A stretch of 42,240 bases of DNA from assembly GCA_021736615.1 (NCBI GenBank), contig JAIPFN010000005.1:1-42240 (forward strand), written 5' to 3'. Under the pieces are notes generated by a model. The model searched no databases and was not told where the DNA came from. It worked only from the letters and a program-made list of their open reading frames with translations. Each line of letters begins with the position of its first letter. The first letter of the stretch is position 1. The position numbers and the translations under genes were made by a program. The stretch is from Phycisphaerae bacterium. Its GTDB lineage: Bacteria > Planctomycetota > Phycisphaerae > Sedimentisphaerales > Anaerohalosphaeraceae. Shown piece by piece: positions 11,926 to 24,221 of the stretch.

Positions 11926-14871
11926 CTATTCGGTGAGCTTGCGCTCTCGCGCTTTTGTTTCCAGCCAAATCTCGGACAGAACCGCATTAGCTCCTGCTTC
12001 GTTTTGAATACAAACCCGTAAACCTCCTTTGTTTATCAGGTCCGCCGGCAAATCTAAAAACTGTTCACCGGGCAACTGACCTTTGTTTTTATAAGCCGGC
12101 AAAACGGTCGTACTCAGAAGCTTTTTCCTTTTGCTGCCATCAATCGCAGAGACCCAAACACTCTGCTTTCGACCGGCATTATTGTAGTCCCACCACTTCA
12201 AACCGAGCTTGTACTTTTCATCTTTTTGAAACTTGTCGATATCAAACACAATTTCATTTTCCGAAAAAGTTATCTCTGCGTCTTCACAGTTTACACCTTT
12301 TATAGTCGAAGGATTACAGAACGAATACCCCTTACCAGTGCGCTGTATAATTGTCTCTTTATTGGATTGGCCGGAAGATTTGTCTATTCCGCAATTGATA
12401 TATGCTTTTATCACAGAATCGTTTTGTCTGCTAAGTTCTCTGATGCGCTGCCGATGTCTTTTTATGTCAGCTTCGGCAGCCTTTCTAAGCAACCTTACTC
12501 CAATATTTTTGGCAGTCTGCTTTTTCGGATCAGACTTTAATAAAACAATCTCGTCCCAACCGCCGTAGTACTGTGCGTTAGTATCTATCCACGCCGCAAA
12601 CGTTCGCCACTTGGCTGAATCCAACTCAACGCCATAGTGCCCCTTCTTCAAAATCTTCATCAGCTTGCTTACGCGTGAACCGGTTCCATTGACCGGCAGC
12701 GGCAGCTTTTCGCCCTGGTAACCTCCCACACGAATATAGCTGACATACTCAACCAGTTTCAAAAACGAATCCGAAACGGCATGCTGCGGGCCCTGGTCGC
12801 GGTCATAAACAGCAGGAGCCGTGACCATATTCTTTCCGCGAAGATCGAAACTTTTATCCTTGCCGACTGTTCCATCGTGACATCTAACGCAATCGCTGTC
12901 GAGGATCGGCTGAACGATCTTCTTAAAGCTAAAGCCCCCTGCTCCCCATGGCGGAGCAGCGATCTTCGACGGCTGACGTTTCATCGCCATTGGCATAGAC
13001 ATATTCTTCGGTATAAAGCCGTACGGTTCATGACAGCCGGTGCAGCTTACCGACTCGCCGGGCATGACATTCATGAAATTACGCATGCGGCGGATTTCCA
13101 GGTAGTCCTTATCAAGTGCTTCAAAAAATATCTGCTTGTACGGAGGCAGATAGAAATGTACCGAACCGTCGTCTTCGACCGGAACAGTACCGAGCACTGC
13201 TCGAACATCCCATCCACTGGACAGACCCACATCACAACGCTGCGGATTTGTACGCATAGTCTTGCTGAATGTCTCAAGTATACGAAGATGTTTAACTTCG
13301 CCGCGTTTAATGCCGTCAAGACCCTGGTAAATATCAGTAATAACAACACTGGCCGGTGTGTCTTTTGGCACACCTTTAACCCTGTCCGGAATTACACGCG
13401 GCCTGGGCCTGGGTTTTACCGGTATCGGGCTGTAGCACGAACTGTCCTTTGCCCGATAGATCAACTCCTTGTTACCGTGAATATCCATCAGGTAAAGGCC
13501 GTATCCGTTTCGAACAGCATTATTTTTCTCGAACGAATAAGATGCGAGATAATGACTTTCCGTAAGCGGATATGGAGAACCGTACCAGCCGGTACCGTTA
13601 GCTACGGTGTTCATTCCTTTATGAGCACTGACATGTTCGGCCTTGACCTCATTGAATACGCGGCTGTTTATCTCAGGATATCCGATTTCCGGGGTAACGT
13701 TGACCATTGATTCGGGTCCGCCGCGATTAAGTCTTGTATCGACTATCATAATTGGCCCGGCACAGGTATTATGATGCGCCGCTCCTGTGCAGATAATCTT
13801 GCTCGTTCCAGGTATCTGTCTTGCCTCCTGGAAAGTGATGGGGCCGACCGAAAAGGCATAGTGGTCGCCGTAGAGCAAACCGGCTTTTCGTCCGTCCGGG
13901 TTTACCGCCCACAACTGCTGGATAACGTTATAGCCTTTCATCACATAATCCCAGCGGGTGTACATGATGCGCCCGTCTTCCAGCATGCTCGGATAAAACT
14001 CACCTTCTTTCGGTTCGGTTACTCTCTGCAAATCCGAGCCGTTTGTATCCATGGTATATATACCGCACGCCAGTGCCCAGTCGCCGCACTGAACATAACG
14101 GTCATCTCGTGACGTAGTAAAAGCTATCCGGTCGTTTGGCAGATATATAGGTTCGGTGTCTTCCGTCTCGGGTCCGTTGGTAAGTCTCTTTAGCCCGCTG
14201 CCGTCAACGCCTACTTCATAAATATCATAAGCATAACACGCCCCGCCCCTGAACCCGGGTCTGTTGCTTCCGTATGGTGTCGCGGGAACACGTTTTTTGG
14301 CGAAAGGGAAAACTATCCGCTTTGCATCATAAGAAAGGTCGGGCCTGCCAATTCCGCCTTCGGTATAATCACCGGTAAGTATTTCACGAACCTCACAATT
14401 GCCGTCAAGCCCTTTCAAGACACAAAGGTTTGCTCCGGGTATCTGAGCTTCACCGACCCTGTGACCGCACTGGTGGTTCATCCACGGCCACTGACGCTTG
14501 ACAAAAAGCAACTCGTCAAAATCGATAGCCGGATTACTAAAAGCAAGCTGACGCATTGCCCATCGCACTTTGAAATACAAATCTTTATAGCTGCCGGAAT
14601 GCTTTGCCATTTCTTTCTGCATCGCTTCAGCGTAACTTATAACTCTGTCAGCTTTACTTGCGGCTTTTTCGGCACCGAGCCTACGCATATCGGCGATCAT
14701 TAACCGGCCCCTGTCAATCGCCCGGTTCAACGCCTCCGGCGAATCACAATCCAGCTTACGCGTAACCTGCTCCTGCCTGCACCAGTCGGCTTCGATTGTT
14801 TTTTTAAAATCATCTGCTCGTACCGATACAGACACAAACACAAAAGCAATAAACACGTACAAAAACTTCAT
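11926..14871 (-). CDS. HzsA-like secreted protein: beta-propeller with two CxxCH heme motifs
   Basis: The 981-residue protein has a signal peptide (about 1-19). A helical N-terminal part precedes a PD40/WD40-like beta-propeller (about 120-480; RPDLSYDAKRIVF, DGSGLKRLTNGPETEDTEPIYLPNDRIAFTT). A cytochrome-like region follows with two heme-attachment sites, CTGCH (610-614) and CVRCH (661-665), and then a C-terminal beta-rich segment. This layout matches planctomycetal proteins related to the hydrazine synthase alpha subunit. Hydrazine synthesis itself is not implied, since no other anammox gene is present. In this setting an extracytoplasmic oxidoreductase or electron-transfer role in sugar catabolism is more likely. 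The ribosome site is AAGGGA. It is the last gene of the cluster after the Tat isomerase (21-bp gap). Confidence 0.75.
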   Translation of the reverse strand: MKFLYVFIAFVFVSVSVRADDFKKTIEADWCRQEQVTRKLDCDSPEALNRAIDRGRLMIADMRRLGAEKAASKADRVISYAEAMQKEMAKHSGSYKDLYFKVRWAMRQLAFSNPAIDFDELLFVKRQWPWMNHQCGHRVGEAQIPGANLCVLKGLDGNCEVREILTGDYTEGGIGRPDLSYDAKRIVFPFAKKRVPATPYGSNRPGFRGGACYAYDIYEVGVDGSGLKRLTNGPETEDTEPIYLPNDRIAFTTSRDDRYVQCGDWALACGIYTMDTNGSDLQRVTEPKEGEFYPSMLEDGRIMYTRWDYVMKGYNVIQQLWAVNPDGRKAGLLYGDHYAFSVGPITFQEARQIPGTSKIICTGAAHHNTCAGPIMIVDTRLNRGGPESMVNVTPEIGYPEINSRVFNEVKAEHVSAHKGMNTVANGTGWYGSPYPLTESHYLASYSFEKNNAVRNGYGLYLMDIHGNKELIYRAKDSSCYSPIPVKPRPRPRVIPDRVKGVPKDTPASVVITDIYQGLDGIKRGEVKHLRILETFSKTMRTNPQRCDVGLSSGWDVRAVLGTVPVEDDGSVHFYLPPYKQIFFEALDKDYLEIRRMRNFMNVMPGESVSCTGCHEPYGFIPKNMSMPMAMKRQPSKIAAPPWGAGGFSFKKIVQPILDSDCVRCHDGTVGKDKSFDLRGKNMVTAPAVYDRDQGPQHAVSDSFLKLVEYVSYIRVGGYQGEKLPLPVNGTGSRVSKLMKILKKGHYGVELDSAKWRTFAAWIDTNAQYYGGWDEIVLLKSDPKKQTAKNIGVRLLRKAAEADIKRHRQRIRELSRQNDSVIKAYINCGIDKSSGQSNKETIIQRTGKGYSFCNPSTIKGVNCEDAEITFSENEIVFDIDKFQKDEKYKLGLKWWDYNNAGRKQSVWVSAIDGSKRKKLLSTTVLPAYKNKGQLPGEQFLDLPADLINKGGLRVCIQNEAGANAVLSEIWLETKARERKLTE

Positions 14872-21881: not shown

Positions 21882-22634
21882 TTATTCAAGGTGGATGACG
21901 CCCTGTCTGGTATCGGCGTCGAGGCTTGCTTTTTTAAGGACGTTGAATATTTTCCTGGGGTTTCTGACCTTATAGAAATCGAATTCCGGGTCAGTCTCGT
22001 CTTTCGTAAAAAGAGTAACAGTTCCTATCCCGATCAGACAGTCTGTTATCGACCGGTGCAGTTTCATATCCACAACGCGGAACATATCGACATTGTCAAT
22101 CTTGCGATTAAAAAGACCCCGCTCCCACTCGATCCTGTCTGGGGTAACCTCGTAAGCAGTGCTTTTAAGGATAATTATTTTGAGAGCGAAGATCAGCACC
22201 GCAAGGATAGCAACGACAACCGCCGCGAGTATCCGGTAGCTGGAAAACATGATATACTGGTTTTCAGTAAACTCAAATCGGTCAACGGCGAAGTCCTTTA
22301 CATATTGTTCGATGCGCACATTATAAAGTACCCCCGAAAGACCAAATAAAATCGCAGTCTTAAAAAACAACCCGATAGATGCAAACATCGAGGGCCTCAC
22401 CCGAAAAAGAACATCATCATCCTCTCCCTTAAGTTCCTCGTCCAATTCTTCGTCATTATATTCAAGCTCCTCATCTTCCTCAGTTCCATCGTCAACAGCG
22501 AGGTTATCAAGAGCTGGGTGACCTTCCGGGTACAGAAACTCCGAGCAAAAACGGCATTTGACCGCGGCAGCGAGAATAGTCTCCGCACAAAATGGGCACT
22601 TCTTAGTTTTTTTCTTAGTAATCGTTTCGGGCAT
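21882..22634 (-). CDS. Membrane protein with N-terminal zinc ribbon and bacterial PH-like domain
   Basis: Residues about 13-34 carry two CxxC knuckles (CPFC and CRFC) of a UPF0547-like zinc ribbon. A strongly acidic linker (DDGTEEDEELEYNDEELDEE) follows, then two membrane segments (about 85-105 and 130-152). A bPH2/DUF304-type domain ends the protein (STAYEVTPDRIEWERGLFNRKIDNVDMFRVVDMKLHRS). bPH2 proteins are membrane-associated and of uncertain function. No clear ribosome site precedes the ATG. The zinc ribbon, acid linker and PH domain in one 250-residue protein are seen directly; a role in membrane sensing is inference. Confidence 0.8.
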   Translation of the reverse strand: MPETITKKKTKKCPFCAETILAAAVKCRFCSEFLYPEGHPALDNLAVDDGTEEDEELEYNDEELDEELKGEDDDVLFRVRPSMFASIGLFFKTAILFGLSGVLYNVRIEQYVKDFAVDRFEFTENQYIMFSSYRILAAVVVAILAVLIFALKIIILKSTAYEVTPDRIEWERGLFNRKIDNVDMFRVVDMKLHRSITDCLIGIGTVTLFTKDETDPEFDFYKVRNPRKIFNVLKKASLDADTRQGVIHLE

Positions 22635-22838: not shown

Positions 22839-24221
22839 TCAGTGAACTTCGAGTACCGAATTGCATTCCCCGAACGGGTTCATTTCTGTTGTTTCGTTGT
22901 AGGGGTCCTGCTGCCAGTGACCATCGACAACGAGCCTGTAACGGTACTTGCCTTTGGCCAGCGGCAGTTTGATCTGCCACAGACCCTTTTCGGTCATCTT
23001 TTCCATCTGTAGTTTGCCCGGCTGCCAGTTGTTGAAGTCGCCTGCGATCTGGACGCTTTCGGCACGCGGATAGAGACTTACGAACATTACGGCGTCGTCG
23101 ACCTGGCGAACACCATAGAAATCGGCGATCTTCTGATCAATAGTCTTTGCAACGGTTTGCGGCTTAGCCTTCTGATCAGGAGCAGCCTCGGCGACAAGTT
23201 CTACCGTTGCCGGTTTTTCTTCGGCAACTATCTCTTTTTCGACAACTGTTTCTTCTATTACAGGTACTTTAACAATAATCGGAGGAGCCGGTTCGACCAT
23301 TATCTCGCCGGAGGCAACGAGATCTGTCCGGGCAATTTCGGCTTTAGTCTCATTATCCAAAGGCTCTACAGAGGAGAGGAGTTCGTCGGCACTTGCGCTG
23401 ATGGCGTCAAGTTTGGACTGCAATGCCTCAACGGCCTGAGCACGCTGCGAATGTGCATCGGTGCTTACAAGTTCTTCGGCGAATTCCTGAAAATCCTTAA
23501 AGCCCTTACTAGCCGGGTCGTATTCGCTTACGGGCTGACCAAGGCTTGCCGCCTCTTTCAGTTTGGTATTGAAATTGATAACAGACTTGAACATGCGGTC
23601 TGAGAAGTGCTTGCGAAGTTCGCTGAGTATTTCGCGGCCCATCTTAGTACGAATATCGTACATACTGGCAAGAACCATGACGTTAATGTCCTGTCCGCAC
23701 TGGTCGCAAAGAACATTAAGCGTGGCAAGCTGCTTGCTCAGGCCATGTAGAGAGAAGTACCCTGTCTCGACCGGAACAATAATATCGGTAGACGCACGGA
23801 TTGCATTGAAAGTAAGCAAACCGACCGATGGGGGACAGTCGATAATGACATAGTCATAATTGCGTTTAACAGAATCAAGAACCTTCTTAAGGCACATCTC
23901 ACTGTCAATAAGGCCGGCCATCTGCTGCTCGAAAGCGGCAAGGTCGATACTGGCAGGAGCAAGCTCGAAATTCTCGGAAATCTTCCACATGATCTCGGTA
24001 AGCCGAATAGCTTCGCCTCTGCTGTGGCTGACAAGAATGTCGTAAATGCTCTGTTCGATCTGTTCCTCGGGAACAGCGAGGCCAACTGCACAATGCGATT
24101 GAGGATCCATATCAACCAGCAATGTCCTGTGTCCCCTGACGGCAAGAGCACTTGCCAGGTTAATTGAAACGGTTGTCTTACCGCAACCGCCCTTTTGATT
24201 TATTATTGCAATCGTTCTCAT
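22839..24221 (-). CDS. ParA/MinD-type ATPase fused to a C-terminal glycogen-binding (CBM48/AMPK1-type) domain
   Basis: The 460-residue protein opens with a ParA ATPase (about 1-250). It has deviant Walker A KGGCGKTT (10-17), switch LLVDMDPQ (about 34-41) and Walker B VIIDCPPS (125-132), with the family segment DIIVPVETGYFSLHGL. A Glu/Val/Pro-rich linker (about 255-365) leads to a beta-sandwich (about 377-460) with AESVQIAGDFNNWQP, GLWQIKLPLAKGKYRYRLVVDG and HWQQDP. These are the starch/glycogen-binding signatures of AMPK-beta and CBM48. ParA ATPases position plasmids, chromosomes, carboxysomes and chemotaxis arrays; here the cargo could be an alpha-glucan granule. No parB is adjacent. The ATG at 24219-24221 follows GGGAG; an earlier in-frame ATG at 24308 is less likely. 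A terminator follows the gene. Confidence 0.9.
   Translation of the reverse strand: MRTIAIINQKGGCGKTTVSINLASALAVRGHRTLLVDMDPQSHCAVGLAVPEEQIEQSIYDILVSHSRGEAIRLTEIMWKISENFELAPASIDLAAFEQQMAGLIDSEMCLKKVLDSVKRNYDYVIIDCPPSVGLLTFNAIRASTDIIVPVETGYFSLHGLSKQLATLNVLCDQCGQDINVMVLASMYDIRTKMGREILSELRKHFSDRMFKSVINFNTKLKEAASLGQPVSEYDPASKGFKDFQEFAEELVSTDAHSQRAQAVEALQSKLDAISASADELLSSVEPLDNETKAEIARTDLVASGEIMVEPAPPIIVKVPVIEETVVEKEIVAEEKPATVELVAEAAPDQKAKPQTVAKTIDQKIADFYGVRQVDDAVMFVSLYPRAESVQIAGDFNNWQPGKLQMEKMTEKGLWQIKLPLAKGKYRYRLVVDGHWQQDPYNETTEMNPFGECNSVLEVH

What the first reader, a model, noticed from the sequence alone, without database searches (positions are those of the whole stretch)
22839..24221. ParA-type positioning ATPase fused to a glycogen-binding domain
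The same frame holds a complete ParA ATPase (deviant Walker A at 10-17, Walker B around 128) and, after a 110-residue linker, a CBM48/AMPK1-like domain with AGDFNNWQP and KYRYRLVVDG. ParA/MinD proteins are known to position plasmids, carboxysomes (McdA) and chemotaxis arrays by gradients on the nucleoid. A built-in glucan-binding domain suggests the cargo is a glycogen granule or another alpha-glucan body, which would make it a self-contained partitioning system for storage polymer. No ParB-like adaptor is adjacent, consistent with the domain replacing it. The positioning role is inference; the fusion is seen directly.
Basis: partly seen in the sequence, partly recalled or inferred. Interest (0 to 1): 0.88.

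Follow-up and report, generated by a model that had tools for sequence, protein, structure and literature searches.

The report
ParA motor fused to glycogen-binding domain
A bacterial positioning ATPase of the kind that moves chromosomes and plasmids carries a built-in sugar-polymer-binding domain, conserved across much of a class of environmental bacteria, which suggests (but does not yet prove) that these cells hold or share out their glycogen stores on the chromosome.

Summary
The fusion is real. It lies on the minus strand (24221 down to 22839, 460 aa): a complete Soj-like ParA ATPase (1-255), a long helix, a disordered linker and a C-terminal AMPK-beta/CBM48 glucan-binding domain (377-460). 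It is no oddity of one contig: 95 of 149 sampled genomes of the class, and 69 of 78 of the order, hold an orthologue. ATPase residues are invariant in 165 of 165 sequences; the glucan-contact tryptophans are kept in 160 and 158 of 161 domains. Most of these genomes carry glycogen-metabolism genes. Glucan binding is therefore likely. Nucleoid-based holding or partitioning of alpha-glucan particles is the best reading, but inferred.

"No ParB adjacent" means little: in six relatives the strong ParB gene lies beside no detected ParA. And the protein is not self-contained across the class: 55 of 84 sampled loci carry an undescribed same-strand gene directly downstream, a Walker-less FlhG/MinD-like pseudo-ATPase, not found in the window's own lineage. 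Five loci with a damaged or lost glucan domain keep ParA and partner, so glucan binding cannot be the module's only role. Ten paper searches listed nothing on the fusion.

The parts
22839..24221 (-). CDS of the ParA-CBM48 fusion, 460 aa, start ATG at 24221
23457..24221 (-). ParA/Soj-type ATPase domain, residues 1-255
24171..24200 (-). deviant Walker A, residues 8-17 NQKGGCGKTT
   Evidence: K10 and K15 invariant in 165 of 165 orthologues
23370..23507 (-). predicted long helix, residues 239-284, partly conserved (RAELV..LQSKLDAISASAEELLSSV in the consensus)
   Evidence: model, alignment A1 of 34 proteins
23142..23369 (-). disordered, length-variable linker, residues 285-360
   Evidence: mostly pLDDT under 50; gappy in A1; 26-193 residues from 255 to the next motif in 144 orthologues
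23103..23138 (-). conserved short motif IDQKIADFYGVRQ, residues 362-373, just before the CBM
   Evidence: A1; loose pattern found in 144 of 161 fused orthologues
22842..23093 (-). CBM48 / AMPK1_CBM glucan-binding domain, residues 377-460
   Evidence: contact residues W399, R429, W436, F450, N454 aligned to AMPK beta-1 W100, K126, W133, L146, N150 (AMPK residue numbers and roles recalled)

Best explanation
It is a ParA-family ATPase whose C-terminal domain binds alpha-glucan, joined by a helix and a flexible tether. Proposed cycle: the ATP-bound dimer sits on nucleoid DNA non-specifically while the CBM holds a glycogen or other alpha-glucan particle; ATP hydrolysis releases the DNA grip. Glucan particles are thereby kept on or spread over the chromosome and inherited by both daughters, instead of being pushed to a pole. 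In many other lineages of the class a co-directional gene directly downstream encodes a FlhG/MinD-like pseudo-ATPase that probably acts as regulator or adaptor. In the window's lineage that gene was not found and the fusion would work as a one-protein tether or positioner. SHOWN: the two-domain fusion; conserved ATPase and glucan-contact residues; one fused copy in each of six chromosome-level relatives; co-existence with glycogen genes; the adjacent partner gene. INFERRED: DNA binding, glucan binding, the ATP cycle, the cargo, the partner's role.
For: Catalytic residues K10, K15, D37, D39, D128 are invariant in 165 of 165 orthologues. The two basic residues that I align to B. subtilis Soj R189/R218 (named for DNA binding in a legend passage of PMC3778016) are R191 in 147 of 165 and K or R at 220 in 153 of 165. 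Glucan-contact positions of 161 CBMs: W100 160, K126->R 160, W133 158, N150 152, L146->F/Y 153. Of the 95 class genomes with an orthologue (of 149), 82 have a glucan phosphorylase and 88 have a GDE_C debranching enzyme or a GlgB over its cut-off. GT3 glycogen synthase is in 70 of all 149. The nearest relative has adjacent GT, GH57 and GDE genes plus a DUF3417-type phosphorylase. Of 86 orthologues read, 6 have a lost or Trp-less CBM; 3 of those 6, against 1 of 80 intact ones, lack phosphorylase, GDE and GlgB (Fisher 0.0008; not corrected for kinship). Precedents: PhaF joins PHA-granule binding to non-specific DNA binding and drives granule segregation (passages); AlgP spaces polyphosphate granules and is proposed to tether them to the chromosome (passages); E. 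coli csrA mutants accumulate glycogen at old poles and such cells end without a chromosome (passages).
Against: No glycogen gene near it: GT, GH57, GDE and phosphorylase of the nearest relative have no tblastn match within the window plus L001-L164, 1.8 Mb (GlgB and GT3 were not in that search). 54 of 149 class genomes lack a match at E <= 1e-60, yet 51 of 54 have phosphorylase and 51 of 54 have GDE, so the pathway does not predict the fusion. The CBM-loss/pathway-loss link rests on 2-3 independent pairs, too few for a test that allows for kinship. Nine orthologues in genomes without detected phosphorylase keep an intact CBM; eight of these nine still have GDE or GlgB, and one (G087) has none of phosphorylase, GDE, GT3 or full-scoring GlgB. 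G087, G106 and G139 do have GlgB-like matches under the cut-off. One CBM loss (G070) is in a genome with phosphorylase and GDE. ParA and partner persist where the CBM is damaged or lost (L151, L156, L158, L159, L164). In known systems cargo is linked through a partner that stimulates release (passages of PMC10241942); no such activator is seen in the window.
Confidence: 0.5

Rival explanations
1. Glycogen sensor: the CBM reads the glucan store and the bound state changes ParA's ATPase or DNA binding, so that reserves control chromosome segregation, replication or division, as the AMPK beta-subunit CBM links glycogen to a kinase. No particle is moved.
For: Same CBM type as AMPK beta; ParA core closest to chromosomal Soj, known as a segregation and replication regulator (relatives; role recalled); long flexible tether; near-universal in the order (69 of 78 genomes).
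Against: Each of six chromosome-level relatives also has at least two other ParA paralogues and one strong ParB, so the fusion is an extra protein; no recurrent neighbour of cell-cycle type was recognised among the neighbour clusters.
Confidence: 0.22
2. The CBM is a protein-protein module or a secondary anchor, and the ParA plus its pseudo-FlhG partner position some other cargo (envelope, appendage or metabolic complex).
For: ParA and partner remain adjacent in L151, L156, L158, L159, L164, where the CBM lost key Trp residues or is gone; partner is FlhG-like, a family that places flagella (passages).
Against: In the other sequences the glucan-contact side chains are nearly invariant, hard to explain if only a protein surface mattered.
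Confidence: 0.2
3. It places or activates a glucan-synthesising enzyme, in the way BcsQ, a ParA relative, serves bacterial cellulose synthesis.
For: BcsQ models match the ATPase domain.
Against: Such matches are shared with many ParA-superfamily models, and the BcsQ model is far under its cut-off (89.7 vs 157.85 bits); the nearest relative's GT has no counterpart nearby.
Confidence: 0.08

Closest known systems
Soj/ParA of chromosomal ParABS (8ray, T. thermophilus 1wcv, H. pylori 6iub, SOJ-NRDR model 9a6n)
   Same: ATPase fold and residues; up to 42% identity over 245 aligned residues; DNA-binding basic positions mostly kept
   Different: adds a C-terminal CBM48 and tether; not beside parB; one of several ParA paralogues per genome
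McdA/McdB carboxysome positioning
   Same: ParA-family ATPase that places a non-DNA metabolic body on the nucleoid (abstract and passages)
   Different: McdA is a weaker sequence match (6noo E 5.1e-9) and in known systems a separate partner, McdB, links the cargo
PhaF phasin and AlgP (PHA and polyphosphate granules)
   Same: one protein touches both a storage granule and DNA (passages)
   Different: histone-like, disordered DNA binding, no ATPase; other polymers
AMPK beta-subunit carbohydrate-binding module / CBM48 of branching enzymes
   Same: domain and contact residues
   Different: fused to a ParA ATPase instead of a kinase complex or glycosidase
FlhG/FleN (for the downstream partner of other lineages)
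   Different: no Walker A in any of 55, extra linker and C-terminal domain, adjacent to ParA-CBM

Membership tests
ParA/MinD (A/D) ATPases | deviant Walker A KGGxxGKT, Walker A' Asp, Walker B Asp | tested here: met
   K10, K15, D37, D39, D128 in 165 of 165
ParA/MinD (A/D) ATPases | ParA fold | tested here: met
ParA/MinD (A/D) ATPases | non-specific DNA binding by the ATP dimer | not testable with these tools
   only residue conservation checked: R191 147 of 165, K/R220 153 of 165
ParA/MinD (A/D) ATPases | cognate partner protein, usually stimulating ATPase through its N-terminus | tested here: inconclusive
   none found in the window; adjacent candidate in 55 of 84 orthologue loci; its N-terminus is net positive in only 13 of 38 scored
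Chromosomal ParABS | parA next to parB | tested here: not met
   neither neighbour, nor any of the 14 window ORFs scanned, is ParB; in 6 chromosome-level relatives the strong ParB lies far from the fusion
McdAB | McdB encoded alongside McdA | tested here: inconclusive
   no McdB model was searched; the partner's central fold is FlhG-like
CBM48/AMPK1_CBM | profile match over curated cut-off | tested here: met
   48.1 vs 26.8 and 38.7 vs 22.4 bits
CBM48/AMPK1_CBM | glucan-contacting Trp/Lys/Asn | tested here: met
   W, R (for K), W, N present in window and in 160, 160, 158, 152 of 161; residue roles recalled
CBM48/AMPK1_CBM | binds alpha-glucan | not testable with these tools
   needs protein
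FlhG (downstream partner, other lineages) | MinD-like fold | tested here: met
FlhG (downstream partner, other lineages) | Walker A ATP-binding motif | tested here: not met
   0 of 55 partner sequences

The most novel reading that the evidence does not exclude
A dedicated partition machine for a storage polysaccharide: ParA has acquired its cargo receptor in cis, so that glycogen particles ride the nucleoid. The ancestral form may be a two-gene system with a pseudo-FlhG regulator, reduced to a single gene in the window's order. It would be the first ParA system known to me whose cargo is a polymer recognised directly by the ATPase.
Probability: 0.33. Interest if true: 0.87.

Novelty: new variant of a known kind. 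Interest (0 to 1): 0.71.

Why it matters
How bacteria place and share carbon reserves at division is, to my knowledge, largely open. In E. coli csrA mutants glycogen collects at old poles and the chromosome is excluded (PMC4836754, passages). A conserved ParA with its own glucan receptor, near-universal in one order, makes the question directly testable with one gene and two tryptophans. It also gives a rare A/D ATPase whose cargo can be guessed from sequence, and it brings with it an undescribed pseudo-ATPase partner family.

Tried and rejected
Chance or mis-assembly of the fusion: rejected (80 of 80 loci L001-L080 fused). ParB-replacement argument: rejected, since ParB is not adjacent to any detected ParA in six chromosome-level relatives. 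Linkage to glycogen operons: looked for by tblastn with four proteins, none. 'These bacteria lack glycogen synthesis': considered when the GT5 profile gave one strong hit, two at 1e-32 and otherwise 1e-11 to 1e-23 in 149 genomes; dropped after GDE, phosphorylase, GT3 and the GT-GH57-GDE cluster were found. GH57 was not surveyed across genomes. Window neighbours as partners: the acyltransferase family recurs within seven genes in 11 of 74 anchored loci (directly upstream in 8), and the zinc-ribbon/bPH_2 gene downstream is shared with L001; neither is general. Partner versus ParA by profile-profile comparison was not significant (probability 0.5%); the FlhG link came. A resemblance of the partner's N-terminal motif to the MinE N-terminus and to the IADFYGVRQ motif is recalled or by eye only and is not claimed. 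The 'charged N-terminus' idea was scored and is mixed: 13 of 38 net positive. CBM decay versus pathway loss: nominal p 0.0008, but no power once kinship is allowed for. The VIA-align list for the fusion model covers residues 1-260 only, so the CBM fold was not tested there. Structure models: fusion mean pLDDT 65.9, partner 76.0. Limits of the genome searches: only up to 11 and 5 candidates a genome were scored; genomes without a match at the threshold were not all read (9 of the 54 class genomes were, through L170-L172 and L175-L180: plain ParA without CBM); G202 (E 5.6e-58) was left uncounted. Papers: ten searches listed none on a ParA-CBM48 fusion by title and abstract start; the library holds open-licence PMC papers only, and supplements were not open to me.

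Full report

HOW WIDESPREAD. The 119 protein hits listed besides the query carry both domain sets in the table. Of 238 encoding loci in named genomes the best 80 were fetched; their titles are Planctomycetota/Phycisphaerae MAGs, apart from two 'uncultured bacterium' records, and all 80 are fused. Among 149 genomes of the nearest relative's class, 95 have a best match at E <= 1e-60. In its order it is 69 of 78 at E <= 1e-100. In 292 genomes of the phylum 33 match at E <= 1e-62, 30 of them genomes already in the class set; how many of the 292 belong to the class is not told. Six chromosome-level MAG records each hold one fused copy plus at least two other ParA paralogues at 32-40% identity. In a tree of 117 ParA domains the 18 sampled plain paralogues are one supported group (SH-aLRT 100), with the 95 fused proteins and 4 CBM-less kin on the other side. 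This fits one fusion followed by a few losses, but the root is not fixed.

IS IT A WORKING ATPASE AND A WORKING GLUCAN BINDER? K10, K15, D37, D39 and D128 are invariant in 165 of 165 orthologues. The basic positions aligned by me to B. subtilis Soj R189 and R218 (named in a PMC3778016 legend passage) are R in 147 and K or R in 153 of 165. In 161 CBMs the residues aligned to AMPK W100, K126, W133 and N150 (roles recalled) are W 160, R 160, W 158, N 152, and the L146 position is F or Y in 153; T148 is not kept (E 111, G 28, D 18, Q 4). This is strong conservation of the binding face, not a measurement of binding.

IS THERE GLYCOGEN TO BIND? The classical GlgA (GT5) profile gave only one strong match in 149 genomes, and GlgB passed its cut-off in 16, with weaker GlgB-like matches in 53 more. 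But phosphorylase is in 133 of 149, the GDE_C debranching enzyme in 129 and GT3 glycogen synthase in 70. The nearest relative (G007, 85% identical fusion) has a GT with glycogen-synthase-like N-terminus, a GH57 enzyme and GDE side by side, plus a DUF3417-type phosphorylase. Of the 95 orthologue genomes 82 have phosphorylase and 88 have GDE or GlgB over cut-off. Of the 54 without a match, 51 have phosphorylase and 51 GDE, so the pathway does not predict the fusion.

A NATURAL EXPERIMENT, WEAK. I read the fusion in 86 of the 95 genomes (84 fetched loci, L001 and L002; the other nine were not fetched). Six have a lost or Trp-less CBM: W133 is replaced in G088, G155 and G139 (G155 also at W100), and no CBM is found in G151, G106 and G070. 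A seventh (G108, L140) has the CBM in another frame and is counted as intact. Three of the six, against 1 of 80 intact, lack phosphorylase, GDE and GlgB (Fisher 0.0008); for phosphorylase alone it is 4 of 6 against 9 of 80 (0.004). Five of the six sit in one part of the tree, beside the intact G129, so only 2-3 independent pairs exist and no significance can be claimed.

MECHANISM. Known A/D ATPases bind a matrix as ATP dimers and are released by a partner that links them to cargo (passages of PMC10241942). Here the cargo link appears to be in cis. With the partner, the pair could form a full cycle: ParA on DNA, CBM on glucan, partner as activator or brake. Without it, as in the window, a tether with intrinsic hydrolysis is the simplest model; it would keep glucan on the nucleoid, as PhaF does for PHA (passages) and as AlgP is proposed to do for polyphosphate (passages). 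The alternative that glucan state signals to ParA is nearly as economical. The persistence of ParA plus partner without CBM says the module has, or can take, another job.

NOVELTY. ParA ATPases, CBM48 and storage-granule tethers are known kinds; this combination, and the partner family, turned up in none of my ten paper searches (listed under Tried and rejected; open-licence library only, and none of them was made for the partner family itself). I file it as a new variant of the A/D ATPase kind, not as a member of ParABS (adjacency tested, not met) and not as McdAB (untested).

Noticed in passing
L089:5521-6972 and 54 further loci in L081-L164: Undescribed pseudo-ATPase family, FlhG-like without Walker A, directly downstream of ParA-CBM48; short N-terminal motif and an uncharacterised C-terminal domain.
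   Followed up: partly
window 11926-14871 (-): 981-aa protein with a match to the hydrazine synthase alpha middle domain (PF18582, E 3.5e-21) in a lineage where no anammox role was examined.
   Followed up: no
window 21882-22634 (-): Zinc-ribbon plus bacterial PH domain protein directly downstream, same neighbour in L001.
   Followed up: no
L165:3971-5700 and L169:3023-4777: Two plain KGGCGKTT-type ParA genes in tandem, 265-283 aa, members of a second ParA group without CBM.
   Followed up: no
L181:4248-9158: GT, GH57 and debranching enzyme side by side in the nearest relative; GT3 glycogen synthase strong in 70 of 149 class genomes while GT5 GlgA is nearly absent.
   Followed up: partly
G001-G006 (chromosome-level MAG records): The strong ParB gene is not adjacent to any ParA match in six of six genomes.
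   Followed up: no
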